Below are positions 26,390 to 52,420 of a DNA stretch of 64,000 nucleotides, one piece after another. Below the pieces are notes generated by a model. It did not search any database. It saw nothing but the letters and a program-made list of their open reading frames with translations, and was not told the origin of the DNA. A program made the translations under genes and the position numbers. The DNA lies in NCBI RefSeq assembly GCF_036370855.1, contig NC_088111.1:20185501-20249500 (forward strand), in the 5' to 3' direction. Each line of letters starts with the position of its first letter. Positions within the stretch are counted from its first letter, which is position 1. The DNA comes from Dromaius novaehollandiae (taxonomy: Eukaryota; Chordata; Aves; Casuariiformes; Dromaiidae).

Positions 26390-26641
26390 AAACTAGCGGA
26401 GTGGTAGCGCAGCTTGCGAGGCTTGGCGTTGCCCTCGGGGCGTAGCCATCCCCTGCAGCAGCTCTGCTCTTCGCCACCGGCCAAGTGGCCTCTGCTGCTG
26501 CTTCGAGGCTTGCTGACAGGGGCTGCGCGGGGGACGCGCGCCCCGGCTAGCGGCACTGCCCGGCCGGCAGCGATGTAGCTGCCGCCTGCGGGACGGAAGG
26601 GCGGCGGGAAGGTGCCAGGCTGCACCAGCGCCCGGGGAGCA
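26390..26641 (+). promoter_or_regulatory. CpG-island promoter of the helix-turn-helix gene
   Basis: CG-dense sequence begins near 26,390 and continues through the first coding exon to about 27,060. There is no TATA box. The ATG at 26,642 follows ggggagca (purine at -3, G at +4), a fair Kozak context. An in-frame GTG lies 30 nt upstream, but an ATG start is preferred. Confidence 0.6.
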
Positions 26642-29600: not shown

Positions 29601-30068
29601 CACAGAATAAATCCTCTAGCTAATCCTCTACTGAAGGAGCAACCGATAATTTTTCACCTTCCCGTCTCTCCTGCCTCCCACTACTTCCAGGTCAAAGATG
29701 CCAGCACTCAAACTGTCCTGCTGAACGTTGCGGGTCCTGGAAACCAGAACCTTGCATGGGGGGGACCAATGCTTCCCCCTGCTCCCAGCCCACACGCTGT
29801 TGCCGAAAAGCTGGATGCTGTACACACAGAGATCCAGAAACTGAGTCAGGCGATGCACGCGGTCCTGGAGAGGCAATGCCGCCTGGAGCGCCAGCAGGAG
29901 CACCAGCAGCGGCTGCAGCAGGAGATGCTGATGACGCTGCAGCAGCTCAGCTCCACAGTGAGCCACGGGACTGTGCCAGGAAACCAGCCCTGCGTCCCCT
30001 TCAGCGGCATGGCCGAGCCCTCGCCCGCTGTGCCAAACTTCAGCCAGTTCAAGATGGAACTCATCTGA
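26642..30068 (+). CDS. Helix-turn-helix and coiled-coil nuclear-type protein, 394 aa, name not recognised
   Basis: Four exons: 26642-27134, 27551-27729, 28690-28824 and 29691-30068, all GT-AG with phases 1, 0, 0 that join in frame (1,185 nt including TGA). Residues about 5-48 form a compact helix-turn-helix (AKKRIVELRKAGLSFRKIKK, then VTPQAVYLFLKRK), of the paired/Tc1-transposase or homeodomain-like type that binds DNA. An acidic Glu/Gln segment (QENEPEQDEQE) and a low-complexity middle follow. Exon 2 ends with a Lys-rich KKKIVDRAILLQKK, a possible nuclear localisation signal. The last exon has a Leu/Gln/Arg-rich coiled coil at about 305-358, and the C-terminus FKMEL fits a SUMO consensus. 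The layout (DNA-binding head, coiled-coil tail) suggests a dimeric transcriptional regulator, perhaps domesticated from a transposase; that is inference. It converges with the LTD gene on the opposite strand. Confidence 0.85.
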
Positions 30069-30532
30069 CCTTGCGTGATGCCGAAGTGCAGGACTGAAGC
30101 GAGAGCAGGGAGGGATGCCACTGTGGAAGGATAAAAGTCATGAAGAAGAGCAGGCTCTAATGCTTCAGAAGCTGTATCAGCTGCCTCAGGATTATGTCTG
30201 GCATCCGGCAGAGGAAGGTCACTGCTGCATCGCGTCTCACTCTGCTTCAGCCTTGTCGACTAAGAGGAGCTGCCTGGCATAAGAGACAGGGCAATAGAAA
30301 GCTGAAGCCTCACTTCTCCCACGCTGCCCATGCTGGCTGGTACTGGAGTTGGCCAGTTGCCGATGGACTTCAGCAGCTCAGACAGGCCGGCTACAAGTAG
30401 AGGTCAACTAGGAGGGACGCAGCAGGGAGACAGGTCCCCAGGAACAACATGAGACTTGCTCTCATGGGAGTTGGTATTGTGACAGTCAATCACACGAATG
30501 CTTTGTACCCTCCCCCTGCAGAGCCTTGTTCA

Positions 30533-31627: not shown

Positions 31628-34600
31628 TTAGAAATCTGCCGCAATCTCCCTGCGGTCGTTCATTTCGATGTTGGTGTAATTTGGGGGATGTCTAAAAAGC
31701 AACGGACAAAGAAAAATGCAAGATTAGTTGCTTTGCTCTTTTGTACAAGGCAGCTAACAAGACTCCCATCTCCCCTGCTGTGTTCCTGTATTTAAAATGA
31801 AGAGGCTGGATGACCAGCCTTCAGCAGACATGGAGTTTACTAAAGTCTCTTAACATTTTGGGGGAAAAACGGGGGCAGAACACCTAGCATCAACTTGCAC
31901 ATAATTAATACACATCAACTTAAGAACACCTTGGTTTCTGAAGGAGATTCCCCAAACCTGACTTACGGTATTTTAAAAATTCCTTTTAAAAAATACATAC
32001 TGATTTTTTTCTATTCTCTAGATGAATTTTAAGAACTTTCCTCACTTCTAACACTCACACATCAGCATCCTGTTGAATGAGCAAATGTACCCAATCCAGA
32101 AAATTTCATGAAAAGAAATCATCTGGGCTCGTTAAATAACCAGTCTGCTAGAACACTTTTTCAGCGAAAATGCAATTTGAATATTAAGCTCTTGTGTGCC
32201 TTCTGATAATATTAGAGACAAGTGTGTCATGTTATAATATGGAAGCTGTTTCCTATGGAGGTTACTTCCATCCTGCTCTAAGGAACAGCTCTTCCCTATT
32301 GCCAAAGTGCTGTCTCCCACTCTTCCCTGCCTGCCAGGAACCTTCGGTTCTCTGTTCTCTGACCAAAACACGATGGCAGTACAAATAGTAAGACTGATAG
32401 ATGTTACACTGTATTCAGTGACGCAGCTAGCTCGATTCATGGATTTAATCAGTCATTATCTTAACCTCCTGCAGAACCTGCAGTCTCCTACATCGAAAGC
32501 AAAGGGGCTTTACTGAAAAAATTAGGCTCTGCGTATTGCCGTGTTTGGGTACAGTGGCTGAAGGTAGGTGTTCAGCTGAGTGAAGGAGCAGGTCACTGGG
32601 CAGCGCTTAGGGAGGAAGCCTGTGGCTTCCCTGAAACACTGTGGAAGGAAGGGGTGAGAGATGCATGGCAGATGGGAAGACAAAGACAGTTGCTCACCTT
32701 CTGATGAAGTAAAATGCCAGGCCAACCAACAAGAGCGCAAGCAGGAGAGATCCCACAACAAACAGGGCAATTTCCCAGCCCTGGAAGGAGGCTGAGGGTG
32801 GAAAAATAGAGACAGGACCTTGTAGTCATGATCTTTCCCAGCACGTAGTGCCTTCGAGAGGTCGGCCTCTCCCAGCCTCCTCATCTGCAGAGCCCCCGTT
32901 CCACCGCCCTGGAGAACAAGCACCTCTCAGCAGTCTTGCTTTTGCTTCATTCCAGTTTCGGGGCCAGCTGGTGCCTCAGAGCTTTTTGATTTCCTTGCTG
33001 TATGCCTACCCGACCGAACAGCAAGGGGCTCCCTGTCAAAGCTCAGGCCCACAATGAGATTTAGACACTTAAAACTCCAGGGGTATCTACAGTTCTGCTA
33101 CACCTCTGGGGATGGGACCCACGTAGTAAGGCTGACTAGGCAATCACCTGTCACTCCAGAGGAACCGACTGTTGTTACATCTCTCTTCTAACAACCCATT
33201 AGCTTCTAGAAGACAGCTTTGTTTAAGAAGCACTGTAGGTCCCTGATGTCTGCTCTAAATTGCCTCCTTTCTCCTGAGTACCCTGTAACGTGGAGATGGA
33301 GTGTGGTCCTGGCCCCAGCGCTGCTTGCTCTGCTGGAAGCAGAGATCATTGTGTTAGTTCTGTCTCCTACTCACAACTGCTCTGCGGCTTCGGCGGTGCA
33401 TTTCTCAAGGTGACACACTCTGCACTGGTTTTCAGCACTCTCCCTTCCACAGAGAAGGGGTGGGGGCTGGCCACGAAGCCTTGGCGCCAGGCTGTGATGG
33501 ACTGCTGCTGCTCCGGCTGTCGGGCCCACACCTGGCCTGAGACCTTCACCAGGGAGTCCACGCACGTCAGGTTCAGCTCTGCAGAAAAGCAACAGAGGGT
33601 CCTGACTAAGAAGCCTGAAACCCTGCCTTCTCCTTGTGCCTCTGAAATCACCCCGCAGGGGACGGCACTCCATCCCCTACAGAGCAGGTAGCTCAAGCAC
33701 ATACTCAACCTTTCCTTCAGTGACAAAATGAACTTGGAGCTCTCCTCCCAACCCAGCAAAATACTTTGTACTACACTTACAGTGACTTAATAACTTCAAG
33801 GCCTCTACCCTTTGGACAGAGTTGTTTGAAATTGTTCAAAGGATTAAAAGGCTCTTCTACCAAATAAATTGTTCAGGAGAGGGAGGACTGGCAGCTGGTG
33901 TGACTGCATAGCCTTCATTTCCTTACATAACCAAGCTAAAAATAGGAACCATTTCTTCCCATCTCTCAAAAGCTGTTGGGCACTAAGACTTTTGGAAGTG
34001 CCTTTTTGTTCTAGGTACTTCAAATAGATATAGGACACTCTAAAGGAGTCTGATTCAGAAAGGGTTGAGAAACCCCCCTCCTCTGGAGGCCAGAGCTCTT
34101 TAGAGTAAATGGCTTTTTGCTTTGCAAGTTTAGATTTGCCTCACAGACATCTCAAGGCATCATTTACAAAATCTTTCTCAGACAGTCTTGCCCTGCCCTT
34201 GTCCCACATCATAACTGATAGTTGGCCATAGATGAAATGGCAGGGAGATCAGACCTGTGATCTCAAGCTGCCTGGCCCAGAAACACTGCGCAAGAGACAA
34301 GGACCATTTCCAAAGGTGTGTGACACTGATATTAGGAGTCACTGGATAGTGAAGACATCTCCACCAGGCTGTGGCAGGCTAAAGTTCAAGATGTGCTGGA
34401 AGCATTCTGCCTCCACCCCCAGAAATAGCCCTTCAACCTAGCGGTACAGAAGAAAACACAGCTTTGAGATGTTTTGGCTAAATTCAGATAAGTTGTCAGA
34501 GATTCATATTCCTCATAGTCCCTTAAGCTTACCTGTGCTCTAATAAGCAGCCCATACCAGCTTCTGCTGTGCTCTCCTTAATGAAATTCTGTGTATACAC

Positions 34601-37600
34601 TGCCACCAGTCCAGCTCACCTCACTCACGTTATCAGTGTGAGAGGCCTGCAAATTAGGCTCAAAAAAAGGCCAGCTTCTTGCAGCTGCCTCAGCTCTCTC
34701 CTGCTGTCTCAGGAGGAGAGAGAATGTGACTCTTCCTCTGGTGCTCGTCCGGGGTGGGAGAGGGGGGGAGGCATTGCAAACTGCGTGAACGGAGCGGGGC
34801 ACTAACCCTGTAGGTAGAGCTCAGAGACGCCGCAGGAGCAGTTCTCCTCTAAGGAGGTCAGCAACACCTTTCCCATGCTTTTCAGCATCCTCTTGTGGTT
34901 CAGGGTCCACGTGGAACAATCTATAGGAAGGGGAGAAGTGGTTACTTGAGTGCAGTTCAGGCCTGTTCGTAAGCTTCCAGCTGTGTTCTCCTTCCAAAAC
35001 ACTTGCCCTCACATCTGACCTCACGAACAAAGCTGACCAGAGCCTGGTTACTGCTTGGTGGGAGCCCTTAGCAGGAGCTTGTACGGGAGCCTCCCAACTG
35101 GCTGGACCTTGTCCCATGGCTCCCTCAGCCTCAAAGCAACCCCTTGCAGACCAAGACTGGCAGGGACAATGATGAGATTCCCTGGCTTGCTCCAATATTT
35201 ACAGGGAAGAAGGAGCTGCTTTCCATCCTCCTCCATGTATACCAGTGGACCCTCTTTTCTGCAGGTGTCTGCAGAGTGGGTCTTCCCTTCTGGCCTTCTA
35301 CTGATACATGCGGCAGTTTTACTCTTTCACCAAATCTTTAACCTCATTTGTATCCCAAAACACCATCAGATCATCCAAACTCTGGTGGTTAATAGAGGCC
35401 TGCCAGATTTCAAGAGACAGGAAGCTAGCTTTCACTTTGCAGGCCTCTCTTGTGCACCTCAAGCCTCATGCCTTGGTCTCTCCCCTGCTCGGTGACCCAG
35501 AAGCCATACACAGTGTGTTAAGCACCCTTTAATCTGCTAGCTAGCTGTGCCGGCGGTTTGGCCAGAGAGCAGGAACGAGGCCATAGCATGGTGCCTGCAA
35601 CCAAAGAGTGTGCCAGCTGTGTTCAAGGGAGCCGGGGAAGAGGCATGCCCCTCTCCCACTCCCCAAACTAGCACAGAGTGGTCTCTTGTGCAAGGAGAGG
35701 ACGGAGAGGTCCACTGCCTGCCTCTCCTACACCTCGGTCCCAGGCTGCTTCTCTGAGAAGGTTGGAGGAGGAGGAAAGCGACCCTCTCAGTTTGATTGGG
35801 GAGGGCCTGAAACTCCTGTTTGAACACAGCATGGGAAGTCGCAGGCTGGACTATTCTCCAGCAGGCCAAGAACATGTCGAAACAGCAGATTCTTCACTGC
35901 AGCCTACAATAAGCAATAAACATGGAAACCTCCATTTTGTTTAAGCCAGGTCTTGCCTGCTCCAAAGCTGATCAAAGTATGGCCTCTGGAGAGGCTGAAG
36001 ACCCCACTGTACATTCAGTTGCTGGCCCCAGGGTCAGGATTAGGCCATACCACTTTGTTCTTACTGATGGGCTGGGACAGGATGGTTTGCTTGCGATTTC
36101 CCTGACCATGCCCCAGTTATCATGACAGGGCTGGAGAAGGATTTCCTGTCATTGCTGGAAAGCTGACTGACTTTCCACTTGTCTGGAAAAAAAATCTCCA
36201 GAGCAGGGTTCAGCCCCCGTGTGAGCAGGGGTGTCTCAAACGAAATACGCTGCCACCTTCATACAAACACACACCAAAAACACGAGTAAGGCTGCCCACT
36301 TGAGACAGCAGTGTGTTTTCCATCACATCAACACACCCATATCTGTATTAATGCTCCCTCCTGCACACACTCCCCCTTCCCTCTCACTGCTGGAAGACAG
36401 CAGGCTCCACACCCCCGCGCCCACCCCTTCCCGCCCGGCTCTGGGCCATGGGAGGTCACACCGTCAGCACGGTTCCCTCCCAGCCTCCCCAGTCCCTTCC
36501 CAGCCCACCCCCTGCACACACTGGTGGAAGCCAGCAGCTCTGCTTACTGGGTGTCAGGAAACACAGATCAAGATCCACCGCAAAGGAGGTCTGGGGACAG
36601 CTGTTCTGCAAGCCAGGCGTGGGGTCCGAGACAGCAAACTGCAGCTCCGCACTCCCATTGCAGCAGGAACAACGGCTCAGCGATACTGGCCTGCTCCCCA
36701 GAAAAACGAGTCAAACCTCACCAACACACCACACGGATTTCTTCACAAATCCCCTCCAGAGCCACAGTTCTTGACATCACTGGGGATGGCGGATAGTTTT
36801 CTGGAACTGGAGTTTACATCAACTTTTGCAGAGCCTTCACAGAGACAGGTCTATCTAATCCCATCAGTTGGAGGGGACTTGGGTCTGGCCAAAGCAAACC
36901 TACTTAATTTGACCGGTTTCTAGAGCAAGGCTGTTGCCTCACAACAGCCAGTCACCCAATATTAAGAGCTAGTTCTCCAGAATAAGGAGGTTTCCAAGCT
37001 ACACAGTATTTGCCCTTGGGTTTCACTGACCTATTGCTTCCCTCTCTATGCCAAGGCTTGGAAACTTAATTAAGCAATGAAGAACCACGTTTTTTGAAGG
37101 AGGTAGTTAAGGGCTAGACTGACCGAGGCAGCCTGGAATCGACTCATGTGAGCTCTCCCACTTAACTGCCTGCTCTGATGTTATGATTAACTGCCTTGGA
37201 GAACTTATAGCATAATGTTGCAGTGAGCCAGAAGCCAGAGATTTCAATTTCCTATGGAAATGACGCATATGCAAGGGCTCTGCATATGTGTGCTCATATG
37301 GGTAGGCTGTGTATTCCTGAAAACTTGGAACCTGTTGTCAAACCAAATGGTACAGTGGAGTAAAGGACTTCAAGAGGACAGCTTTAATTAAAAGAGGTGA
37401 TCTTGTGGAAAGGAGAAACACTTCTGGTATTTTCACCAAAAGAAAGGCTAAACGCTGACCTTTGTTAAGCAGGGAATCCACCTAGTCGTGAAAGGGAAGC
37501 CAGGTTTTGTTTCGTTCTGCTGCTCACAGAGCTACCCCGTTTTTTAAAGAAAAAAAAAGTTTGGCAAAGAGGCATACACAGTTGCTGCCTGTGAAGGCTG

Positions 37601-40600
37601 AATTCCTTCACGTGATGCCATATATATATCACTTGAGAAAAGCAAGTTAAGTGAACAGTGAGGTAACAAAGCTGAATTCCCTGTGCTAAAGGAGGGAAAA
37701 CATTTTCCATTGCACTATGCTACCCACCTCTCCATTTTTCATCATAGCTGCGGTGAATGCATGCAGCTTTACAGGACACAGGACAAGGCAGCAAGCTCAC
37801 ATATATGCCAGCTGGAGGCTCTGGGCTGAAGAACCTAAAGACATTTTCCTGGGGAAGTTGCCTCACCTGTCCTCCTTGCAGGGCACAACGTAAGATGGTC
37901 CGAGGAAGTCCAAATGTCCTCCACCTGTGCTGGGCCCACATGTGTAAACCAAAGCATCCACCAGGTTCTCCGACGTTGCCTTCATGTCGCCAGGAATCAG
38001 ATTGGTGGTGTACACAGCAACAGCACTATAGCCTTCACTAGCAGCAGAGATGTCCTTGAAAGTCAGCTTCATCTCATCTGGAAATGCCAGGGGGATAAAT
38101 GGGGTGAACATCTAGACAGCTTTAGGGCCTTGAGCCTGAAAGGACAAGTTGGTAACGAGGAGTGGATTTCACCGGAGAACTCCAAGAACAGAAACGGCAG
38201 ACAAAATAACAATAGTGATGGGTCAGAAGAAGCTGTAGAGAAGCCACTGCTTGCTGTGAACACAGGTTTCTGGAAGGTCAAGGTTCCTCTAAGACAGAGA
38301 GTGCTCTTCATGCAACCCAGAGAGAATTTAAGAAGAACAAAAATCAAGGTTAATGTATGTGCCAAGCAAATACCAACTCAGCACCAGGAGGAGGCAGCAG
38401 CATTGCAGGGTGCTGGCTCATCCAGCCTCAGAGGCAAGTAAGACATCAGTGGAAGAACTGACAGTGGACTCCGCTTCTTCTAAAATCCACCTGGCCATGG
38501 TACCGGCAAGGGGAGCTTTCAGTCTTCCAGGTCCTTCTGCCCTACACCAATAGCTCAGCAAAACAACTAATCTATGATTAAACGCTTGCTCAGCAGGAAT
38601 GCTATGGAACACACCACGCAGAATAGAGAGAAAAATGACAGAAACAGAGAAAAGGGAGAGAGGAGTTATTATGCCACTATCTAACCCTGCCTCACTGCCC
38701 TTTTCTCAAAATCACTTAATACCTGGCCACCTGGCTATCTAAAACATGCAAGGGCAGCCCAAAAGCCAGACGCTGAAGGAAGGGAGCATCTGCCTGCCAG
38801 ACTCTGCCATTAGCCTTACCATGCTTGGGCCCTCTCTCTGGCGTAAACACAAACAGGCCTGTGACCCCGAAGGTGCCCCACAGCGGGATGCTAGCAGACA
38901 TCTTGCCCTCTTTCTCAGAGAAGAATACCAGGCTGTGTCCTTTCAGGCTAGCTCCGGGCTTCCCCCTCAGCTCGACGAAGCGATAGGTAGCAGTGCTGTT
39001 AACCAAACCCAGCTCGTTGATGAGGACGGCAGAATCGCCAGGGAGCAGAGCGGAGGAGTCGCTGCAGGAGTTCTCGCCAAGCGGTGTCGTCACGGTCACC
39101 TGCGCGGAGAGACAAACTGCCGCAGTCATGGCTACTCCCATTTCCTCAGGTGGGCTTATGGCTCCCCACAGGGCTACTTCTCGTGTGAGTCCCCCCGCCC
39201 CCCCCGGTAAGACCCAAAGGAGGATGTCATGGTACTGCTCACAGCTGGACGGAAGCCAGCTGTTCCTCACCTCCCACCACCTCGTCTAAGGGCTCTCCTA
39301 ACGGCGAGGTCACACCACCATACATCCCCCATCGCTGCCTTCCTTTTTTCAACACTGCTGTCTTCACTTCCACCCTCGGGACGAAGAATAATTCTCTTTC
39401 CCTGCTAACAGGAGCAGTTCTACACTCATATCTTGACTCCACACCAACACTTCCTTATGTTCCTTTCCTGGTGCAAAGGTCCCTTGGAATGTGACAGTGT
39501 GGAGAAAATGGAGTACCTCCCTCCCCCCCGGATCTCTTCTGCTTCCAGAGCACTTTTATTGTCTCCATTTTTGACCTGAGCACACCCCTGCTCTGGCCTG
39601 ATCCTAGTGGGCATCAGCAGGGGAACAACAAACTCCTCCCTTATTCAGCCTCGTAAAGGAAAAGTACACATGCTCTGCGAGCGTTTCTTCAGGTGGACTA
39701 TCTGAAATTAGACATTTTGAAATAAAAAGAACAGTTCAGAAGAATTAACATAAGTCAGTCACACCAGTGGTTAAGGCATGCCCTTTACACCTTCACCTTG
39801 CGGGAAGCTGGGTTTCATGGATGTGAACTCTTGTATCACACATCCTGAAACTGGCACCAGACAAGCAGGTAAAGAGGTGGCTCCGCATCTGGCTTGGGAA
39901 AATCGGAAAGTCTGGGATGCTATCCAAAAGCAAACTCCCCAGTCCTGGGGTTGGTGGCATGTGAGCTGCCTTAGGGGATCTCTTGGGCTCTGAACCACGT
40001 GGCACAGGGCATGGAGTTGTTACGTGGCTAACAACAGGAATGAAAGCGGGGCAGAGAGGGATGAGGGCTGGCCGAGAGCATCAGCAGCTGACAGAAGATA
40101 GAAGTGATTCACCAGAATGCCCAGTTTTCCCTAATAAAGCACCTACTGGAACATGACCACTAGCTTCCCATGGAATATGGATGGAGAACAGACATCTGCC
40201 ATCAACATACCTGGAAGCTGCTCTGGAGTTTTGCACTCAGGCTGTTACAGCGGCTCAGAGACTCATCGTCGGTGCTGTGAGAATCATTTTCATACAGGAT
40301 GCTCTGCCCCGGGACCAGCACTTTGATCAGCCGGTCTGCCTTTTCCAACCTTCGGGATGTGTACACCACCGCATCCGCCAGCCCCTCCGCAGTCACGGCC
40401 ATGTTCACCTTGTAAAAGGTGCTGTTGCCGTAGTAGAGAGCCACAGCGTCCGCCCCGTTCTGGATGGTGTTTGAAGGCAGCCTGATCATGGGTTTGGGAC
40501 TCACAGCGCTGCTCCCCACCAGGAAGTAACCCAGCTCATTTGTGTGGTGTCCGGACAGGTCCAACACCCAGTAGGCCAGGTTATTTTTACCATTGTAGAG

Positions 40601-43600
40601 GACCAACCAGTATCCCTGAAGGTCAAAGCGTTTCCGTCCAGTGTAGAAGAGTTCGACATACTCTGTGTCCTCTCTTCCGCCTGGATTGTCTGGGTTTATC
40701 TCACTGATGAGCAGCCTGGCCATCTGTGTAGAGGGCTCTTGCGTCCCTTCTGGTACCTCTGATGGGACACCACAGAAAGTAAAAATGACATGAACACGGG
40801 CCTAAGCACAGCGCCCTGGACAAAGACCAGATCATTTCTGCGCAGTGTTTTGCTGAGATGTGACCAAATTCAATAGATGACTGAGCATAGCGGCCCAAAA
40901 CCCTAACACGTACTTCTCCCTCTTGCAACAGCACGCAGGGAAACCAATAGGCCTTTGCTGCGTTAGCAACGAACAAGGCCATGCCTGCTTCACACAAGCC
41001 TGGTGCCCCCAGAGATGGTGGAAGCTGCTCCTCTTACCTGACGCTAGTCCTTAACAGTGTAACGTACTTGCAGAGGAACCAGAGGAGAGCAAAGTAACAA
41101 AACCCCTCTGACTTCTCACAGTTTATGGTATACAAACTTGTCTGTGTTTGGACATAAGTAGAACTAAGACACTGAATATCTTTTTGACCACAAATCCCAA
41201 TAATTTTTATCTGTGTGCTCCAAATACCTTAGAAAAGCCATGAGATTACCCTACCTCACTATTATCGGCTGCAATAACTGAGTTTGCTGTTGTGCCACAT
41301 AACATGAGCTCTAATAACTGGATGAGATGGAAGTGTGTGTGGGGGGAGGCTCTTTGCCAGAGTTCGGGAAATAGAGGGAGGCACATCTCTCTCCTCTGGG
41401 TGAGCTAGACCCACATGTCCACTCTCAAATACATTGTGTCCCCCAACCAGCAAGAATGATGTCCAGTACCTGGAGGCAATTCTGGCTCATTAATGTCCTT
41501 GAAGCAGGAGCTTTCTGCTGTGATGTTCCTTCCGTCAACACTCAAAACTCTGGGGCTTTCCAGGAAGGTCTTTAAGGCTAGCAGCAGGCTGCTCAACTGG
41601 TCTTCTGACCTGGCAGTTAGCAGAGTGGTGAAGACAAGCCCCAGGTCCTGGCAGACTGCCTTGGAATCTGAAAAGGCAAGCAGAGGACTGCCTCAGTTTC
41701 ACCGCATTTTCATGCAGACACACCTTCTCCTGGAAGGGAAGAAGAGCAAACCAGCTCACCTCCACCTCCGCTGCCCTCCTGGTCAGCGCTGATTCAGGGG
41801 AAGAGCTTAGCCAAACCGCTCATACCATCAGCGCAATGCTGCGAGCTCTGCAGCAGCCCCTCTGCCTGTGCAAAGGGGCATTCTGGGACCAAGCTCACAC
41901 AGCATACCCAGATACCGTCCTCAGCCTTTCGGAAGCTTTGTAACCCCCACGGCAAACAGAACGGTCTCTTCGAGGAGTCTAAACATGTGGAGCTGAACAT
42001 AATGCTGCTGTCAATGCAGGCTGCAAAGGCATGGCTCTTCTCTTCACGCATCTGCATGCGCTCAGCACACCTGCACACTAATCTAGTAGGGATGTCACAG
42101 GAACACAGCAACCAGTACGTGCACTTGCATTTCTGCTGCAGCTTGGCTTAGTCTGGCAGGTCCACAACACTTGACTCAACAGGAACCTCATGCAGAAACC
42201 TATTTGTTGCCTACTGCAGCTGTGCATTACAGTTGTGGTCATCTCCCTCCCTAGCCAAGTGGCATCACCTCCTGCAAGGTGATTTGGGGGCTAATGAACT
42301 GACTTTTCCTTTCTGAAGTCCAGTTTTATTTGGATCATAAGGTCAGTTAGGTAACTAACTCTTAGTCAAGATATCCACCCTGTTGCCAAACCTGCCTGAC
42401 AGAAAATAGGCTGAAATAGGTGGCGGTATGCAGACCAGCAGCGATGTGCGTTGGCAGAGCTGCAGATGGGAGTGCTCTGCAGAACAGCACCATGCTCTGC
42501 CTAACACTTGGCATTTCCATAATCAGCAGCTTTACCCAAATTCACATTAGTTGGGATCTAAGCCAGGAGGATGCAATCCAGCAGGGAAATCCAGGGCTGA
42601 AAATCAGATGTGAATTGGCATTAACCACTGGTGGTCCCTGGACTGCCCTTCTCCTGCCTACCTCACCTTTGAAGTAGGCAACAGAGATTCCACAGCTGCA
42701 GGACCTGTCAAGGGCTTGGACTAGAGTCATCAGGATCTCTTCTGACTTCAGGAGCCACGCCTGGCAATCTAGGAAACAAAGAAACCAAGAGTTATACGGC
42801 CAGTGAAACTTCAGCCACAGGCTCCAGCTCATTCCTGGATGCACGCAGCTCAACTGCTGCTTATCACTCAGAGGGCCTGAAAAGGCTTTACTTCACCCAG
42901 AGCAGGTGGGTGTAGGAATCAAGACTGGAGAAGTTTAGCCTGGAATGGATTTCTGTGAAGAAAAATATTGCAGAGAATTGTCAGATGTTCTGGTTGCATT
43001 TCTTTTGGTATATCTGCACACACCCCAGGATGGCTCTTGGTAGACCCCTCCGGACAGCCCTGGCTTTGCAGACATGCTCGTGTCCTTAGGAAGCTGTGCC
43101 TACAGGAGCAGAGGAAGTCACTAATACGCACCTGCTACACGAAGGCAGAAGGAGATGGTCTGGCTGAAGCGTTTACTGGGGCAGTCATTGAACTTGCCAG
43201 GGGTAGGGCTGCTGAGGACATAGGACAAAGAATCCCTCGTCACAGAGCAGCAGTTGCATTGGCTCATGGACACGTCACCCAGCTGGTGCCTGAAAGAGAC
43301 AGATGGATAAATGAGAGAAAATACGACTTACCAGCCAGAGAACTGGGCGCTCTTCACCCACAAGTTACATCTGCCTGCACTAGAGGATGAACCTATACAC
43401 ATATGGTCTTCTCCCTCCACAGGGTCTGGAGAGATACCCCATCCTCATCAGTACTTCGTTGTCTGAAAAATGAGCCCAAAAGCTCTCTAGTCCTCGAGAG
43501 AAGAGCACAGGCTCCATCCCATCCTTTCTCTTCTAGCAAGTCACCAGCTACTACACACCTTTCGGGTGATCTCCAGCTATGGAGCCAGAACATTGGTATT

Positions 43601-46600
43601 TAATTGACAAGTTAGGCACAGATCAAGTCTGGTGCTCTGCCATGAAAACCACAGACAAGAGCTTTCCCAGCTCTTTTTTGCTTTTTATCTGGTTCTACAC
43701 ACCCAACCCCATGCCCATGTGCACTGCATCTCACTGCCTCTGCCCCTCCACCTGCTCCACTGTTCTTTAGTCACTCTGCTTGTCCTCTACTTTTCCGGTT
43801 AGTAGAACATGCCTAAAATATGAAAGAAATAGTTTTCATGTCCCACAAAATTTTGAGGTTACCAATGTTTCTCTCAGCCCACACAGGGGCAAACCTAAGC
43901 TCTTCAAAAACCAGAAAGTGATTCAACCTAGAATGACCCAGTTTCAAGTCCTTGGTCAGAATGAACCAGAGCAGGGATTTCAGCCTGGGTCAGGTGAGCA
44001 TCGTCACCATCAGACGCACTGAAGTCCCTCCCCTCTCCCTCATTCTGACCTGAAATTCCATCCTGAACCCAAGAAAAACCTTTCTTGTTAAAAGTGGTAC
44101 AGAAATGCCAGGAAAATTTATGATATTGGCCCGTACGCTTTCATTAGCAACAATCATTTAGTCAGGAAATTCTTCTTCAAATACTTTATTTTGCAAGTGA
44201 GCAGCTGTGCCAGGTCTGCTGAGGAGAGTTAGGGGCACCTGCCCACGTGGACCAGGCAGTGGAAATGGCAGGGACTCAGTACTGCTATAAGGAGACCCTG
44301 ATGTGGGGACGGCCATCGTGTCCTAGCTGTGAACCGAGCTCTAGGTGGGGAGACCAGCAACCCAAGTCCCCACGTGCCACGCGAGGTGGGACTTCCCTCC
44401 TGGCTCGCTGAACAAGAAAAGTGCTCTGTTCACCAGGAGCCATTTTGTCACAGGACAGTGAAGGCCCAGCTGGAGATGAGATGTGTCACGTTACAGACGT
44501 TACAGACCTCACGGCTGCCGGGAGCTCTCCTCCCAAAGGCGACCTAAACCTCCTCACAGCCAATGCCCCTCTTTGGAAGGGTAAAGACACAAGTCAAAGA
44601 TGACTCTAGTAGGCAAGGACAGCTCTAGCGGGCAAATCCTCTTCCCAGCTTTATCCACCGAGAAGCCTCTCACCACTTTTTTTCATAGGCAGGTCGGCCA
44701 GGGGTCAGGGTCTCCAGCAGCGCAGGGTCTGGTCCCTCGCTGCTCGTGTATACAAACGCATCCAGCACGCCGGTCACCGGCGGTGCTCGCCCCAGGACGA
44801 AACTGCTGCTGTTGCCTCTGTAGAGGGCGATGGCATTGGCGCCAGCTCTGAGGAGGGGGCTGCTAGTGTCCTGCGGGAACGGCAAATCCACTGCACGCCA
44901 GGAAAGAAAAGGAAAAATGACAGTATGTAAGAAATGCACAACCAATATTTGCATAACCAGGGAACTGGACATGCTGACTGAGAGAAGGGCTGGTTTTGGC
45001 AGATCTTGCATCTGCAGCCACACCTTTCTGCTCACCAGCGTTCCTCATGGTCTTTCGGGCTGAACTTCTCCCTTCGTGATCGGGTTCACAGTTTGGGAGG
45101 AGACTGGAGGGGGAAGGCTGAGCAGAGTTTGTTCTGCTGTTTGGTTTCTGCTAGCAGAGAAGCTGATTCAAGCCTAAGTAGGGGAACTGGAGAAGTGCTG
45201 ATGTGACTGTCTATGTTAAGGTCAATTTTTAAGTCTAAAAGAGATCTGCAAAATGAACAAAGCTTGAAAGTAGTGGTTACTCTAGTACACAGAAATATTT
45301 AAGAACTTACGTTTTATTTTAGCATTTAACTAACAGTACCTGGTTTTTACAAAGACACACTCTGCATACATATATATATATGTATATGTATATATGTATG
45401 TGTGTGTGTATATTCAGCAAAGGCCCAAGATACCAGCGGACAGAATTAAGGTTGAAATTTGGCGGTTTCCCAATTTTCTGAGCTTCCCAATTTCTCTCCT
45501 TCCATCTACTGTGCCCTTCACACGCTCCTTCCCTGACACCCAGTAGGAAGTGCTGAGGATATTAAAAAGCAGCAGACTGCTGAAATTTCAATAATTCTCC
45601 CTTGTCTAAAGGGTTCTAGGGAATAAACATAAAAGTAGGAATCACATGAGAGGGCAAAGGGGTACGGAAAAGTGACTGCCATCTGAGAAGTGCCACCAGG
45701 GAACCTGCAAGCTAATGGACAGTCCTGTGCTTCAGCCCCTGATGCACCCCTGCGCATTGCCCAGCTGAAATCCGGCTAGCGGACTACTTTTTCCCCTATT
45801 CAATTGAAGGTTTTTGCACCAGCACAGATCAGGGCAGGACTTTTGCCTTAGTGCTCTTACAGTTTTAAATCCAAAGACTAGCAGTTTGGGTTATTTTAAG
45901 AGCTCCTGCCTCAAAACTGAGACAATTCAAGGGTCAGCTTTTCACAGAGTGCTTAGTGTGGAGACACTATGAAAGTATCCCTTTAAGATGACTAAAATGT
46001 AAGCACCCAGTATCACTTTTTTTCTTTTTTTAGAAAAATCTGGACTACCCTTCCACAGAAAAGAGGGTATACAGTATGTGTGACACATCTTGATAAAGCC
46101 TCAGCGGAAGAAAAGCCAAAGCATATCTAGAATCATGTTCTTGACTTGAGTGAGCCGTGAGGAACAGTTCAACATAATCCCTAGAAATTTCCTCCTTAGT
46201 CTGAAAGCTGGTTGTGCTCTCACATCACTTTGTTTGAATGTAGCTTTTTAGCTGCTAGCAGCCCCAGCCCACTCAAAGGCAAAAGTAGAACATTTTTTTT
46301 TCTGGTGTGAAAAGCAGAGCTGAAGTGTACAACCACCTGTTCTACTTTTGGTAAGAGATTATTTGGAGTGGTTTGAATTTTAAAAAAGATGTCAAGTGCT
46401 TTAAAAAAAAGCTTTAGTTGGAAAAGTATTTTTTATCTGCTACTGCTATGAGGACAGTATAAAAGAGAGGGATTCCTTCTAATCTCTCGCAGCCTATGCA
46501 ATCATCAGCACTTTTAGATTCCCCTTAGTGAAGTGTTTGTTTGGACCACACTGAGACCCAGACTGAAGAGGAACAGGTACCAACCATGGCACTTCTCCTA

Positions 46601-49600
46601 GTCTTTACCAAATTTATGCCCCCCCCAACCTCAAGTCAGGCCACGCAGCAACAACCTCTGCTTGAAGCACAGTGGAGCTGAGGGCTAGACCCAGAGGAGA
46701 GTTTAGACAATAAATTCAAAGCTACGGTCCTAGCACCCTAGCTCTCCCGGCAGCGGTGCTGGAGATGCCTCGGCTGGCTGCTCTAAACAGGGAATAGCAG
46801 CAAGGCTGGCAAGGAGATGCTGCAAGGGGATTCGGTGGGGGGGGGGGGGGGACGGGGGGAGGAGATAGCTGGGGCCCTGGGAGCTGACCGGGAGCGATAG
46901 GTAGGAGCTGGCTGAGGAAGAGATGGGGAGGCTGCTTGTGCCAGGGGGCTCTGGCAAGAGGAAGGGGCAGCTGGGACAGAGGCGTGGACAGGCAGGGCAA
47001 TCCGCAGCTACCAGGAACTCCGGAGCCCATCCGAGATGCACCTCCTCGGCTCAGAGGCTTTTGCTGCCTGGGCCATCTGCTCTCTCCTGGCCAGAGCTCT
47101 CGGGGCAAGCTCCATCCCAGGCGCTTCCTGAACACCTTCCTCCTGCTACGGCAGACTGGGACCTTTCTTTTCGCCTTTTTCATGACTCTGCAGCTGCTTT
47201 TTCCTTTCGCATTTGAGAGCAAAGGTCAGTGACTAACACGATCCTCAGCTCCTAGCTAATAGTACACATCTGCTTCTGGTGTCTTGGGTAGCCATCTTCA
47301 AAACAGGGGAAGGAAATGTAGTGGGAGGAGCTGCTGGGAGCTGTCATGGAGAGGCCAGACTTCAATTTAAAAGTGCTTCAGCTCTACGTTTTTCTTGTGG
47401 TAGTCATCAGAGCTTTGTTCTGGTTTTGTTTAGCAACCCAGCTACTGATTCTGAAACAACAATTTTATATATATATTTAATTGCAACACGGGAACCAGAT
47501 TTGTAAGAGATGACAAGCCCTGACTCAGAGCTCATGATTCAGGCAATTACACAAGATATCTGCAGAGTCAGTGTCTCCAACTGCCAAAATCTTCTTTTGA
47601 GGTGCCTAAAATAACAAGACATTCTGTCTTCCTCAGATAGCCTGGAAGAAATTTTGAAAGCTAGCAAGAAGTTTAGATCACAGTTTCAAACAACTGATAC
47701 AGATGTGATCTTCTACATTTGAAGATGACTCAAAGAAAGAAAAGCCCCCGTGCTTTTGGGGCGAGAGAGTGTATTCCTGTGATGAGTATATGCCAAGTTA
47801 CAGAAATGGAGACATAGTAAGGAAAAGTGACGCACTCAGGGTCTCAAAGCACGTTGGCAAGAGGGCTGGGAGCCACGTTCCCTCAAGCGTGGCACTGTTC
47901 ACGACAAAGCACATTCCTCAGGCTGTCTGAAGCAGGAACAGATTTACCAGGGGAAAGCATTGCCTCCTCAGGGTCAGGTAGGCAGATAAACACACCCAAG
48001 TACACAGGGAGTCATGCAGCATCTGCCACCCGCCACCCACTCTATCCACACATCTGACTCTGCACCTTCTGCCCAAGCACTAGCACAAACTAACTCTGTC
48101 TCATCTTTGGGATACATGTGAGTGGGACAGCTTGCACTTTTTGCCTGCATTTGCATAATGCTTCAAATCCGCAGACATGGTCCAAGAACATCAGAACAGC
48201 CAGAGATTTACTTTCTTCCCAACAGTGACTACACACAGCTGTCCAGGGAAGATCAGGAGACACATACATGACACTTCCCCCCAATGTTTGCTCAGTATCT
48301 GAGAAGATACTGAGAAAGAAGACAAACTTTCTAAGCTGGATGTACTTTTGTGTATTTAGCAAACTTACCGGAATCTTTCTTCCACAAGCCTTCCCAGTTT
48401 CCCTATGAGCCCATATAAACTTCTGACCTTCCATGAGGTCCCTCGCCCTGGGGCTCTGCAGGTCTACCATCACTGTGGGATAAACCACCTCCATTTGTTT
48501 GTCCTGAAACTACCTCCTTCCATCTTTGTTTGATGCCCCTTAGCTCTTTTACCAGAAGAGGCAGTAAACAATTGATCCCTGCCCATTTTCTTCAGACTAC
48601 TCACATTTCTGAAACCTCTATCACAGCCCTCCTAAACTTTCCCTTTTCTAGGCTGAAGAGCCCTAGCTTACTTAGTTGTTCTCGTACGGAAGCATTTCCA
48701 GACCGCTGATCATCCTTGCTGACCTTCTCCAAACTTCTTCAGTTCTAATATTTCCTTTCTGAGATTAAGGTATTATACCACAAAAGATACAATCCAAGAT
48801 AACAGCAAGTCATGGGTTTGTACAGTGGCATCAGGATGGCCTCCATTTCTTTCTCCTCTCCTAATAATTTCTAATATTTAATCTGCTTTTTCTAATTCCC
48901 TTTCCAATTTTCTAACATTTGGTTTGCTTTTTTATCTGACACTGAGTACTAAGCTCACGTTTTTATTGGTCTGTCACAATGTCAAACAGCAAAAGAAAAA
49001 ACACAGCATCTCCCAGCCCCAAACTTGACTGATCATTCCCCCAGCTCTGATAGTCATCAGAAAACAATCCTTACCTGGGGTTTGGCTTTGTGCTGGACCG
49101 ATCAGAAGCAGCCCATCCAGTGAGGTTTTGCCATAAATGTCCATGGTGAAATAAATGTCTTTGGTCTGTCCATCAATCAGCACCAGAACGATGTCCCTCA
49201 CCACGGTGGAATGGGGACCCTGAAGCTCTATATACTCAAATTCTTCAGAAGAAGAGACAGCATGGACCTCACTGATCAGGACAGTAGATTCATTCAGCTG
49301 AGAAGTTAGGATGCAGTGGTTGTCTTTGCCTGGGCTGGGCATGGCCACTTGGAAGATCCACTGAGAATCGGCCCCACGGCATCTTTCTATTGACTCATCC
49401 AGGGTCCTGAATGTGGAGTCCTCCAGGAAAGCATCTCTGCCAGGGGTCAGTATGCTGACCAACGTATCTGCTCTGTCCGTCTTCTTAATCTTATGGACCA
49501 AGGCATCTACCAGACCATCACTTGTGACGCCCATGCCTTCCTTGTAATTCCCTTTCCCATAGTACAGCGCAATAGCATCAGGGCCGTTCTGGATGGTGTT

Positions 49601-49945
49601 CTTAGGAATGACCATGGCAGGGTTTACAGAAGAGGAGCCAATGAGAAAGAACCCTTGGCTGTCAGTAACTTTGCCCTGGAGGTTCACAACCTTGTAGGCT
49701 TGGTTTCCGTTGCCGTTGTAAAAGACCAGATAGTAGCCATCTAAAGGGGCAGCTCGACCACTGGTGTGATAGAGCTCCACAAACTCCGAAGTGTCCTCTC
49801 CCGGGCTGTCAGCATTGACTTCATTAATCAAAAGCGTATGTTCTGTTTTTTGGTCCCTAGGGTTTTTTATAAGATTCTGAGCAGCAACTTTGTGAAACCA
49901 GATGCAAACAAGTACTGTCAATCCAGCCAGCCCGGCAGCTCCCAT
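31628..49945 (-). CDS. Type I membrane protein with four tandem lamin-tail-like domains, 1,067 aa; unnamed
   Basis: Thirteen coding exons on the minus strand: 49945-49075, 44890-44674, 43289-43132, 42768-42667, 41667-41470, 40758-40211, 39099-38820, 38077-37867, 36690-36548, 34920-34807, 33578-33375, 32791-32698 and 31691-31628. Every junction is GT-AG and in phase (3,204 nt). Residues 1-22 are a signal peptide (MGAAGLAGLTVLVCIWFHKV). LTD1 is about 36-185 (LLINEV, FVELY, DGYYLVFYNG, IQNGPDAIALYYG) and LTD2 about 222-360 (LISEV, YIELQ, AGANAIALY). A Cys module with QCNCC and SCSCG spans about 370-510. LTD3 is about 530-685 (LLISEI, YVELFY, IQNGADAVALYYG) and LTD4 about 720-860 (VLINEL, FVELRG). 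A second Cys module (RCSCC, NCSCG) spans about 865-1010. One helix lies at 1023-1045, followed by a tail ending REIAADF with YTNI. At least nine N-X-S/T sites fit a glycosylated ectodomain. Role unknown; probably adhesion or ligand binding at the cell surface (inference). Confidence 0.88.
32698..32791 (-). other. LTD gene exon 12: transmembrane helix
   Basis: Codes SSFQGWEIALFVVGSLLLAL continuing LLVGLAFYFIR: a 23-residue hydrophobic span without charges, followed by two Arg as a stop-transfer signal. The acceptor follows ctatttttccaccctcag and the donor is GTGAGC. It follows the second ectodomain unit directly. Confidence 0.9.
33375..40758 (-). repeat. LTD gene, second ectodomain unit (exons 6-11)
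   Basis: Codes LTD3, LTD4 and the second Cys module. Exons 8-11 are 211, 143, 114 and 204 nt, with the same phases as exons 2-5 and matching motifs (for example SPTPGKFNDCP against SDPTPGLQNSCP). Exon 1 of the first unit corresponds to exons 6 plus 7 here, so one intron (39,100-40,210) differs between the units. Confidence 0.85.
45368..45413. repeat. (TA)n/(TG)n microsatellite
   Basis: About 46 bp of alternating tatatatatatatgtatatg and tatgtgtgtgtgta in the LTD gene first coding intron. Confidence 0.92.
46837..46851. repeat. G15 homopolymer in a G-rich stretch
   Basis: Fifteen consecutive G residues followed by acgggggg and ggagg runs. It has G-quadruplex potential on the plus strand, the non-template side for the LTD transcript being the minus strand. 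The surrounding 46.7-47.2 kb is GC-rich for an intron. Confidence 0.85.
47775..47900 (+). mobile_element. Possible MIR-type SINE fragment
   Basis: The stretch ttacagaaatggagacatag, then aagtgacgcactcagggtct and ggctgggagccacgttccct, follows the MIR 3' pattern (TTACAGATGGGGAAACTGAG... AAGTGACTTGCCCAAGGTCA... AGCTGGGA). Strongly diverged; judged by eye. Confidence 0.4.
48480..48930 (-). mobile_element. Old CR1-family LINE fragment, minus orientation
   Basis: Read on the minus strand it has the CR1 3' region landmarks in an older, diverged form: AGCTAGGGCTCTTCAGCCTA, then AGAAAAGGGAAAGTTTAGGA, and CCATTGATGATCAG-like text replaced by AGCAAGGATGATCAGCGGTC. It lies in the LTD gene intron 150 bp downstream of exon 1. 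Confidence 0.65.
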
Positions 49946-50219
49946 GATGAGGGCTGGAACGTCCGTCTGGGTTCAGAGCTAGAGGGGAAGGAGCTTGTCC
50001 CTCTCACAGCCACAGACGGAGCATGGAGGGAAACTGCTACCACTTGGCCATTGCGAGACGGCAACACGAGGCCTCGGACCTGGCTGCTGACCAGAAGAGC
50101 CAGGCACGCTTCTCCGGGTAGTTCGGGGTTGCGAAGCAAAGCAGCAATCCCACAAAAATCCGACAGAAAGGAGGGTGGTTTGAACAACAACGGATTTCCT
50201 GGCTAGTCTCCTTCAAAGG
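49946..50219 (-). other. LTD gene 5' UTR portion of the start-codon exon
   Basis: The ATG at 49945 is the first in its frame, and an in-frame TGA lies 30 nt upstream. Further upstream a strong acceptor (ttttttcctcag then cctttgaagg) puts the exon start at 50,219. About 274 nt of leader are thus joined to a separate upstream exon. Confidence 0.6.
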
Positions 50220-50430
50220 CTGAGGAAAAAAGGGAAAAGGGGAAAAAAGGGAAAAAAAGGAGGGGGGAAAGGGAAGAAAGGGGGAAAAGGGAGAAAAAGG
50301 GGAAAAAGGGTAAGGGGAAAAGGGGGAAGGGAGAAAAAGGAAAAAGGAAAAAAGGAAAAAGGAAAAAAGGAAAATAGGAAAAAAAAGAGAAAAGGGGAAA
50401 CGACAGAAAAAAGAAAAAAGAGAAAAAATT
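50220..50430. repeat. 210-bp homopurine/homopyrimidine tract at the splice acceptor
   Basis: The plus strand is almost entirely G and A (ggaaaaaagggaaaagggga and similar); the minus strand is C and T, so it acts as a giant polypyrimidine tract ending in the cctcag acceptor. Such mirror-like tracts can form triplex (H-) DNA. Phe/Pro-rich open frames across it are artefacts of composition. Confidence 0.9.
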
Positions 50431-51479
50431 GTTAGGAAGCATAAAAACACACCAGTGCAATTTAATGGCTGTAAAGCCCCAGTACACCTGGATGTCGCTA
50501 ACTTTTCTCCCTTTGTGTCTTTACAGGTTTACCAAGATGTGTCCCAGGGAGTGCTATGGGACGAAAGCAGGCTGTTTTCAGTGTTTGAAACCCTGAGCCT
50601 TGTTTGGACATTTAAAGTATCACAGTGACTGTATTAACAGATGTTACTCCGAGTCCAATTTATTCCACGAGCATTAACACAAAACAGCATTAAAAAGGAC
50701 AATAGGCACCTTCTCCATCCAGGGGAGATGGAGAAGCTGGATTCTCGTCACATGCAGCCCAGAGCGGCTGCAGCGAACGCCACACTAATCCAACCCCCTG
50801 CTGCAGCCCCGGCAGCTGAAGCATGGAGGAGACAGAGGAGACCGTGAAGAACCCCACACGTTCCCATGAATATCCTTACCATTACCTGGCACCAGTACCA
50901 CGCAGTCTCTGTAACAATTCAAGCTCCAAACCAGATGAGCTCACGTGTGTAGGAGGCTTTCAGCCCCGGCACAGGCAGTGCAATGCTTATCCAGTGCAAA
51001 TGATAGGGGAACATGCTGTGGGGCCGCGTCAGCTTGGGGCTGAAGGGCCGAGAACGCACCTAACTCTCCAGCGCCTTGAAATGCTCCAGACTCATGTGGA
51101 GAGCAGCACCTCGCCCACACGGCCTCGCAAAGACGCACGCTCCCATAAATAGCATGCTGTACTTGGAAACTCACCGCTGATGATCACAGCAGTCCAAAGG
51201 TGTGACTGCTGTGTGGGTGGCTCCTGTGCGCGGGTGCGTGTGCAGGACAGCAGTGAAGCCACGAGAGGTCGGGAAAAAAGCGGACAAGGCTGTGCAGCAG
51301 GCGCGTGGCAGGGATTTCCCGGTGTAGTGCAGCACATCTATTGAACGGGACACGTTTTGCTTGTATAGCCTGGACCAGAGGGGACATAGACATGTCCTGA
51401 CCACGTAACACTTTGGAGAGGGTGGCTCGGGAAAGAAAAGGCAGTTTGTAACGCAGAGAGGGGAGACCGCTACCTCCCC

Positions 51480-52420
51480 GGGGGGATCGCGGCGCAGAGG
51501 CTGGGGAAGGCAGGCCTGGCGCTCTGCCCCGTGCCTGCCTCGAAGGGGGCGAGTGCCCTCCGCAAGCCTCCCCCGAGGAGCACCAGCCCCGCCTGGGCTG
51601 CTGGGCGCAGGGCTGCGCCACGCGTGCTGATGCCCACGGCCCACGGTGCCAGGACCCGCAAGGCGCGCGCTGCCTCTGGGCGCCGAACCGACTCTCCGTG
51701 GCCGCCTAAACCGGCCGGGGCGAACAGGCAGAAGGCGCCTCAGCTGCAGGCGGAGGCCGACGGAAAGGGCCGGGGACAGAGCCGGGGGGAGGCCGCTCGC
51801 CGGGCCGAGAGCGCGCGGCCGGGGCAGCCCGGGCCGAGCATCCCCGGGGCCGGGCACGGGCCGCCGCGGCCGGGCGCGCACGAAGAGGAGCCGCCGCAGC
51901 CCCGCTCCGCCCGGCAAGGCGGGGGCGGGGGCGGGTGGCGGAGCCCCCCCGGGCCGCGCGTCCCGGGGCCCTGCCGGGAGACGCTGCCTCCTCCCCGCCG
52001 CCCCGCACTCACCGCGCCGCTCCGCGCCCAGGCCGCGCTCTGCTCCGCTCCGCTCCCGCTCCGCTCCCGCCCGCCGGCGGCCCCCGCGGCTCCGCCCGGC
52101 CCGGCCCCGCCTCGCCTCGCCGCCCGGCCCGGCCCGGCCCGGCCCGGCCCCGCTGCCCCGGCAGCCGCCGCCGCCGCCCGGCTGCCGCGCTGCTCCGCTG
52201 CGGCGCGCGGGCAGTTTGGGGGCTGGAGCCGCAGGCTGCGCGGCCAAGGCCTCCGCCCGGCAGGGACCGACGCCGCCGGGGAGCGGGGCCGCGCCGGGCG
52301 CCAGCGCAGAGCTGCTCGGAGGAGCTGCGGCCTTGGCAGGACCGCGACCTCCCCCGGCCTTCCTCGTTACCCCGGCTCTGGCGTGGTTTCCGCGGTGGTC
52401 CCGCAGCTGGACTCCGTCAG
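51480..52420 (-). promoter_or_regulatory. CpG island, LTD gene promoter and noncoding first exon
   Basis: About 0.9 kb of very CpG-rich sequence, including (GGCCC)n runs at 52,110-52,150. On the minus strand, GGCGCG then GTGAGTGCGG gives a strong donor with the exon ending at 52,013. This is the likely untranslated first exon; it would splice across about 1.8 kb to the acceptor at 50,219. The transcription start cannot be fixed. A 423-codon open frame across the island is composition-driven and not called. Confidence 0.65.

What the first reader, a model, noticed from the sequence alone, without database searches (positions are those of the whole stretch)
31628..49945. Complete gene for a cell-surface protein built from four lamin-tail-like domains
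Thirteen exons join into one 1,067-aa frame with signal peptide, four LTD-like beta domains, Cys-rich modules, one transmembrane helix and a short tail. Lamin-tail domains are established in nuclear lamins and in some secreted bacterial proteins; I know of no described vertebrate receptor with four of them. This is the strongest candidate for an undescribed system in the window.
Basis: partly seen in the sequence, partly recalled or inferred. Interest (0 to 1): 0.9.

Follow-up and report, generated by a model that had tools for sequence, protein, structure and literature searches.

The report
Surface protein with four bacterial-type LTDs
This is a complete, apparently single-copy gene, probably of a bird, for a predicted membrane protein whose outside part carries four lamin-tail domains that resemble those of secreted bacterial proteins more than that of human lamin A; its function is unknown.

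Summary
On the minus strand 13 exons (49945-31628) join into 3,204 nt for 1,067 aa; 12 of 12 introns are GT-AG, no internal stop. The gene is an internal duplication: its halves align over 495 columns at 34% identity (E 2e-85), and the five paired introns share phase. Each half is LTD-LTD-Cys-rich module; then come one transmembrane helix and a 22-aa tail with overlapping PPxY and YxxI motifs. Pfam LTD is passed (70.4 bits, cut-off 34.3).

The new point is the kind of LTD. A profile of 53 bacterial LTDs finds all four domains (155, 81, 144, 45 bits); the human lamin A tail scores -0.3. LTD1 is 32-46% identical to those 53; 15 of 33 scanned bacterial proteins match ExeM/NucH nuclease. No paralogue was found in its genome.

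Not shown: fold (prediction switched off), expression, orthologues in other animals, ligand, route of origin. Best reading: an adhesive or endocytic type I surface glycoprotein. Among the 59 of 65 paper titles seen for 'lamin tail domain', none describes such a protein.

The parts
51200..52399 (.). CpG island, possible promoter and 5' untranslated exon (inferred)
   Evidence: CpG o/e 0.76-0.99 and GC 0.59-0.87 in the four 300-base steps
50219..50221 (-). Possible splice acceptor (AG at 50221-50220, exon from 50219) upstream of the start codon, behind a long pyrimidine tract (inferred)
   Evidence: Read from the sequence printed; position worked out by hand with the ORF
49075..49945 (-). Exon 1: start codon, signal peptide, LTD1, first part of LTD2
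   Evidence: in-frame stop upstream of the ATG
49880..49945 (-). Signal peptide, residues about 1-22
   Evidence: Hydropathy; cleavage site judged by eye
49319..49834 (-). LTD1, residues 38-209
   Evidence: Bacterial LTD profile 154.9 bits; Pfam LTD 39 bits
43187..49282 (-). LTD2, residues 222-397, over exons 1, 2 and 3 (introns within)
   Evidence: Bacterial LTD profile 80.9 bits; hhalign to LTD1/LTD3
44674..44890 (-). Exon 2
43132..43289 (-). Exon 3
42667..42768 (-). Exon 4 (Cys-rich module 1)
41470..41667 (-). Exon 5 (Cys-rich module 1), set by hand
   Evidence: aligns with exon 11
41470..43186 (-). Cys-rich module 1, residues about 398-515, over exons 3-5
   Evidence: 31% identical to module 2; no Pfam match above chance
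40211..40758 (-). Exon 6
39070..40714 (-). LTD3, residues 531-708, over exons 6 and 7
   Evidence: Bacterial LTD profile 143.6 bits; Pfam LTD 32.5 bits at exon level, below the cut-off 34.3
38820..39099 (-). Exon 7
36603..39027 (-). LTD4, residues 723-891, over exons 7, 8 and 9
   Evidence: Bacterial LTD profile 45.0 bits
37867..38077 (-). Exon 8
36548..36690 (-). Exon 9, set by hand
   Evidence: aligns with exon 3
34807..34920 (-). Exon 10 (Cys-rich module 2)
33375..33578 (-). Exon 11 (Cys-rich module 2); its donor GTT|GTGAGT is weak at -1
33375..36602 (-). Cys-rich module 2, residues about 892-1015, over exons 9-11
32698..32791 (-). Exon 12 with the transmembrane helix (residues about 1022-1045, 32774-32703)
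   Evidence: 19-residue hydropathy mean up to 2.85
31628..31691 (-). Exon 13, rest of the 22-residue tail (residues 1046-1067) with PPNY 1049-1052 and YTNI 1052-1055, stop codon
   Evidence: motif meanings recalled

Best explanation
A real, intact vertebrate gene for a type I single-pass glycoprotein. SHOWN by sequence: gene model, internal duplication, four LTDs of the kind found in secreted bacterial proteins, two copies of a Cys-rich module that match no Pfam model, one hydrophobic helix, a short tail. INFERRED: the protein enters the secretory pathway and the LTD array faces outward (signal peptide, conserved Cys pairs, ten N-glycosylation sequons before the helix). The LTDs act as rigid Ig-like modules that hold a partner outside the cell; the Cys-rich modules brace each pair. 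The tail has no recognised signalling domain but carries overlapping PPxY (Nedd4-type ubiquitin ligase binding) and YxxI (clathrin adaptor binding) motifs, so binding outside is most likely followed by internalisation or turnover. That is an adhesive or endocytic receptor rather than a signalling one. My odds: real gene with this architecture 0.97; outward-facing membrane glycoprotein 0.9; adhesive or endocytic role 0.5.
For: Gene model and duplication; Pfam LTD; bacterial profile finds 4 of 4 LTDs with reversed LTDs at 3.5 bits or less; LTD1/LTD3 against LTD2/LTD4 by hhalign: probability 99, E 4.9e-18, 20 of 20 column shuffles at E 0.084 or worse; Cys pair at the end of all four LTDs; 10 of 11 sequons before the helix; two hydrophobic stretches only, RR after the helix; all 13 exons found once in the genome, next place E 0.52. 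Published passages: bacterial LTDs sit on secreted or membrane-associated proteins (PMC6085458); lamin tails can dimerise side by side (PMC12051499).
Against: No ligand, expression, localisation or fold evidence. PPxY and YxxI are short motifs that occur by chance. LTD2 and LTD4 do not pass Pfam alone (2 of 4 match) and have very long branches. In ExeM the LTD hardly mattered for DNA degradation in vivo (PMC6085458, passages), so the domain's role is unsettled even where it was tested. No canonical polyadenylation signal near the stop codon.
Confidence: 0.5

Rival explanations
1. An endosomal or lysosomal membrane glycoprotein of LAMP-like build: two homologous luminal halves, one helix and a short tail whose tyrosine signal, seven residues from the membrane, sorts it to lysosomes; the LTD array lines the lumen.
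For: Two homologous halves, ten sequons before the helix, tail RRHPPNYTNI with Tyr 1052 at place 7 after the helix. The LAMP comparison is recalled.
Against: No LAMP domain in Pfam; in LAMPs (recalled) the signal ends the protein, here 12 residues follow YTNI; no localisation data.
Confidence: 0.2
2. A scavenger of extracellular nucleic acid or chromatin: the LTDs kept the DNA-related role that they have been proposed to have in secreted nucleases.
For: 15 of 33 scanned bacterial proteins with the nearest LTDs match ExeM/NucH DNase and 4 of 33 Endonuclease I; papers link LTD proteins to extracellular DNA (PMC4486849, PMC5118699, PMC3929857, passages).
Against: The ectodomain is acid: net charge -29, pI 5.1; the four LTDs have pI 4.5-5.3. 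ExeM without its LTD still degrades DNA (PMC6085458). The protein itself has no nuclease domain.
Confidence: 0.12
3. A pseudogene, or an assembly or bacterial-contamination artefact.
For: No expression data; no canonical polyadenylation signal down to 24156.
Against: Thirteen open exons with spliceosomal introns, shared phases between the halves, in a 25-Mb contig beside exons of TELO2 and RNPS1.
Confidence: 0.03

Closest known systems
Secreted bacterial LTD proteins, chiefly ExeM/NucH-type extracellular nucleases
   Same: LTD of the same kind over about 175 residues including the tail (S..R... PTPG..N); LTD1 32-46% identical to 53 rows
   Different: No nuclease domain, no bacterial sorting tail; four LTDs, Cys-rich modules, a transmembrane helix
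Nuclear lamins (LMNA, LMNB1, LMNB2)
   Same: Same Pfam family LTD (PF00932) for the protein as a whole
   Different: No filament rod match, no CaaX end, signal peptide present; direct comparison with the human lamin A tail finds nothing
LMNTD1 and LMNTD2 (recalled as the other human LTD proteins)
   Same: LTD in a vertebrate protein that is not a lamin
   Different: Recalled as non-secreted with one LTD; sequences not compared here
LTD fused to CotH in the ichthyosporean Creolimax (PMC4739763, passages)
   Same: An LTD in a secreted protein of a relative of animals, on a gene with bacterial ancestry
   Different: CotH kinase-like protein; its LTD was not compared here
LAMP family of lysosomal membrane proteins (recalled)
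   Same: Two homologous luminal halves, one helix, short tail with a tyrosine signal
   Different: Unrelated domains; in LAMPs the signal ends the protein

Membership tests
Lamin tail domain family (PF00932) | Score above Pfam's cut-off | tested here: met
   Whole protein 70.4 bits against 34.3; LTD1 alone 39 bits
Lamin tail domain family (PF00932) | Each of the four domains passes alone | tested here: inconclusive
   2 of 4 match Pfam at all; LTD3 exon 32.5 bits, below cut-off; LTD2 and LTD4 rest on other profiles
Lamin tail domain family (PF00932) | Immunoglobulin-like fold of the lamin tail type | not testable with these tools
   Structure prediction switched off
LTDs of secreted bacterial proteins (ExeM/NucH kind) | Match to a profile made of bacterial members only | tested here: met
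   154.9, 80.9, 143.6, 45.0 bits; reversed LTDs at most 3.5; but the 53 members were found with the vertebrate LTDs
ExeM/NucH nucleases | Nuclease domain | tested here: not met
   Pfam finds LTD and chance-level entries only
Nuclear lamins | Coiled-coil rod (filament domain) | tested here: not met
   No filament match in Pfam
Nuclear lamins | CaaX end, no signal peptide | tested here: not met
   Protein ends in ...EIAADF; hydrophobic N-terminus
Type I single-pass membrane glycoproteins | Signal peptide, one helix, positive residues inside, sequons outside | tested here: met
   Hydropathy and RR after the helix; 10 of 11 sequons before the helix. Sequence evidence only; no trained predictor was run
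Endocytic receptors | Uptake through tail signals | not testable with these tools
   PPNY 1049-1052 and YTNI 1052-1055 seen in the sequence

The most novel reading that the evidence does not exclude
Vertebrates keep, or once gained from bacteria, a surface receptor whose binding modules are LTDs of the secreted bacterial nuclease kind, a lineage separate from nuclear lamins; it was built by doubling an LTD-LTD-Cys unit and was later lost in mammals.
Probability: 0.25. Interest if true: 0.85.

Novelty: new variant of a known kind. Interest (0 to 1): 0.6.

Why it matters
In the papers I saw listed, animal LTDs are discussed almost only in nuclear lamins and other filament proteins. A vertebrate membrane protein with four outward-facing LTDs, closer to bacterial secreted LTDs than to the lamin A tail, would show a second animal LTD lineage. 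It would make the origin of lamin tails and a possible bacterial-to-animal domain transfer testable by phylogeny, and would give an orphan surface protein with two modules that match no described domain.

Tried and rejected
Automatic exon chaining alone was not enough: it missed exons 5 and 9, took one wrong exon, and at low penalties added more. PDB sequence searches gave no match with the whole protein and with the LTD alignment and two chance-level matches with the Cys-module alignment (best E 0.49). The Cys-rich module has no Pfam match above chance. A scan of viral contigs with it confirmed none of 84 pattern matches, but the patterns used came from its LTD-tail end, so this hardly tests the module. 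By eye its pattern could be a beta-alpha-beta-beta-alpha-beta (SEA- or ferredoxin-like) fold; untested, not claimed.

Tree of 58 rows: LTD1 and LTD3 join at 100/100, but the four vertebrate LTDs do not form one group (three changes; 0% of 200 bootstrap trees have one), LTD2 and LTD4 sit on very long branches, and 33 of 55 inner branches are open. With L004_firstLTD and L018 left out (56 rows), holding the four together is not rejected (p-AU 0.446). The tree neither shows nor excludes a transfer.

Nucleic-acid binding was my first idea for function; the acid charge lowered it. 'LTD domain-containing protein' in print: the catshark one is an SMP-LTD, unrelated; the goat one is LMNTD2; the octopus one is not identified further in the passages. 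Mussel-shell LTD proteins are filament proteins.
Full report
WHAT IS THERE. On the minus strand between 49945 and 31628, 13 exons join into a 3,204-nt frame for 1,067 residues with no internal stop; 12 of 12 introns are GT-AG. I used a small exon scorer and read the sequence. An in-frame stop precedes the start codon. A possible splice acceptor lies near 50219, and a CpG island at about 51200-52399, so a 5' untranslated exon there is likely (inferred). No AATAAA or ATTAAA lies between the stop codon and 24156; only rarer variants occur nearby.

WHY IT IS NOT CHANCE. Residues 1-515 and 516-1067 align over 495 columns at 34% identity, E 2e-85. The five introns with a partner in the other half have the same phase (1,2,1,1,1); three of five fall in the same alignment column, two are 3-4 columns apart. 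The intron between LTD3 and LTD4 has no partner, since LTD1 and the start of LTD2 share exon 1. tblastn of the protein against its 12 introns gave one match, E 3.3. In the whole genome (1.47 Gb, 271 contigs) the 13 exons were found once each; of 15 matches the two others have E 0.52 and 8.8 (only best candidates are scored there).

ANATOMY. Signal peptide about 1-22; LTD1 38-209; LTD2 222-397; Cys-rich module 1 about 398-515; LTD3 531-708; LTD4 723-891; Cys-rich module 2 about 892-1015; helix about 1022-1045; tail 1046-1067, RRHPPNYTNIEMNDRREIAADF. Pfam finds LTD, 70.4 bits against a cut-off of 34.3, E 2e-19, and two chance-level entries. On their own 2 of 4 domains match Pfam LTD. LTD2 and LTD4 rest on profiles: LTD1/LTD3 against LTD2/LTD4 gives probability 99, E 4.9e-18, while 20 of 20 column-shuffled controls gave E 0.084 or worse. 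All four LTDs end with a conserved Cys pair. The Cys-rich modules are 31% identical and share their Cys pattern; they match no Pfam model above chance.

WHAT KIND OF LTD. A scan of genomes of 84,980 prokaryote species with the LTD alignment confirmed 80 relatives out of 175 pattern matches (80 is also the return limit); the best has 40% identity over query residues 6-178, E 1e-36. They come from Bacteroidota, Verrucomicrobiota, Planctomycetota, Acidobacteriota, Cyanobacteriota, Pseudomonadota and others. LTD1 is 32-46% identical to the 53 aligned, against 44-47% to LTD3 of its own protein. A profile of these 53 finds four domains in the vertebrate protein at 154.9, 80.9, 143.6 and 45.0 bits; reversed LTDs score at most 3.5 bits and the human lamin A tail -0.3. 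The rows were found with the vertebrate LTDs, so the high scores are favoured by construction; still, blastp and hhalign between the vertebrate LTDs and the lamin A tail also find nothing significant (best E 0.44 and 0.098). Other lamins, LMNTD1/2 and other bacterial LTD groups were not compared. Of 33 bacterial ORFs scanned (of 80 loci), 15 match ExeM/NucH DNase, 13 a T9SS sorting tail, 27 Pfam LTD, 8 the EEP nuclease family and 4 Endonuclease I.

ORIGIN. The trees cannot tell a bacterial transfer from old shared inheritance. In the first (58 rows) LTD1 and LTD3 join at 100/100, but the four do not form one group and LTD2 and LTD4 have very long branches; in the second (56 rows) one group is not rejected, p-AU 0.446. 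No other animal genome could be searched, so the age and spread of the gene are open. That humans have only LMNA, LMNB1, LMNB2, LMNTD1 and LMNTD2 among LTD proteins is recalled; loss in mammals follows only from that.

FUNCTION. The secretory route and outward LTDs follow from the N-terminus, Cys conservation and ten sequons before the helix. The tail has overlapping PPxY and YxxI motifs (meanings recalled), which suggests ubiquitin- and adaptor-driven uptake. I favour an adhesive or endocytic receptor (0.5), with a LAMP-like lysosomal protein as first rival (0.2) and a nucleic-acid scavenger as second (0.12), the last weakened by the acid ectodomain (net -29, pI 5.1). In bacteria the role of the LTD is unsettled: without it ExeM works more slowly in vitro but nearly normally in vivo, and membrane targeting had been suggested (PMC6085458, passages); DNA binding is proposed in PMC4486849 (passages); haloarchaeal LTD proteins are linked to extracellular DNA (PMC5118699, PMC3929857, passages). 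Lamin tails can dimerise side by side through an added N-terminal strand (PMC12051499, passages), a possible route for adhesion.

LITERATURE. Ten searches of one open-access library. 65 papers hold 'lamin tail domain'; I saw the titles of 59: 57 and two more. None, by its title, describes a vertebrate surface protein with LTDs. The nearest lead is an LTD on a laterally acquired CotH in the ichthyosporean Creolimax (PMC4739763, passages). Lamin homologues are reported in 12 eukaryotic lineages (PMC5630835, passage). Mans et al. 2004, cited in PMC6085458 for bacterial tandem LTDs, was not seen.

SURROUNDINGS. Exons of TELO2 (566-817, E 4.6e-23) and RNPS1 (4843-5022, E 8.8e-31) lie to the left on the same strand; both map to human 16p13.3 (recalled).

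VERDICT. Observation confirmed. Interest 0.6.

Noticed in passing
26594-30198 (+ strand): Another gene, tail to tail with this one: ORFs with the best coding score in the window, starting MGRLDDHAKKRIVELRKAGLSFRKIKKVL; weak match to a Sleeping Beauty transposase HTH model (18.2 bits, below its cut-off 43), so perhaps a gene derived from a transposase.
   Followed up: partly
5936-6214 (- strand): Reverse-transcriptase-like stretch that looks by eye like a CR1 retroelement; no Pfam match.
   Followed up: no
50222-50430: Long purine-rich tract on the + strand (pyrimidine-rich on the gene's strand) just upstream of the possible acceptor before exon 1.
   Followed up: no
L004:3365-6481: An Exilibacterium ExeM/NucH nuclease with two LTDs of different kinds; the second (from residue 213) is close to the vertebrate LTDs, the first sits on a very long branch.
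   Followed up: partly
L096:8335-8703 (- strand): Open stretch with a hydrophobic start and a charged, coiled-coil-like continuation, about 18 kb right of the window; gene not identified.
   Followed up: no
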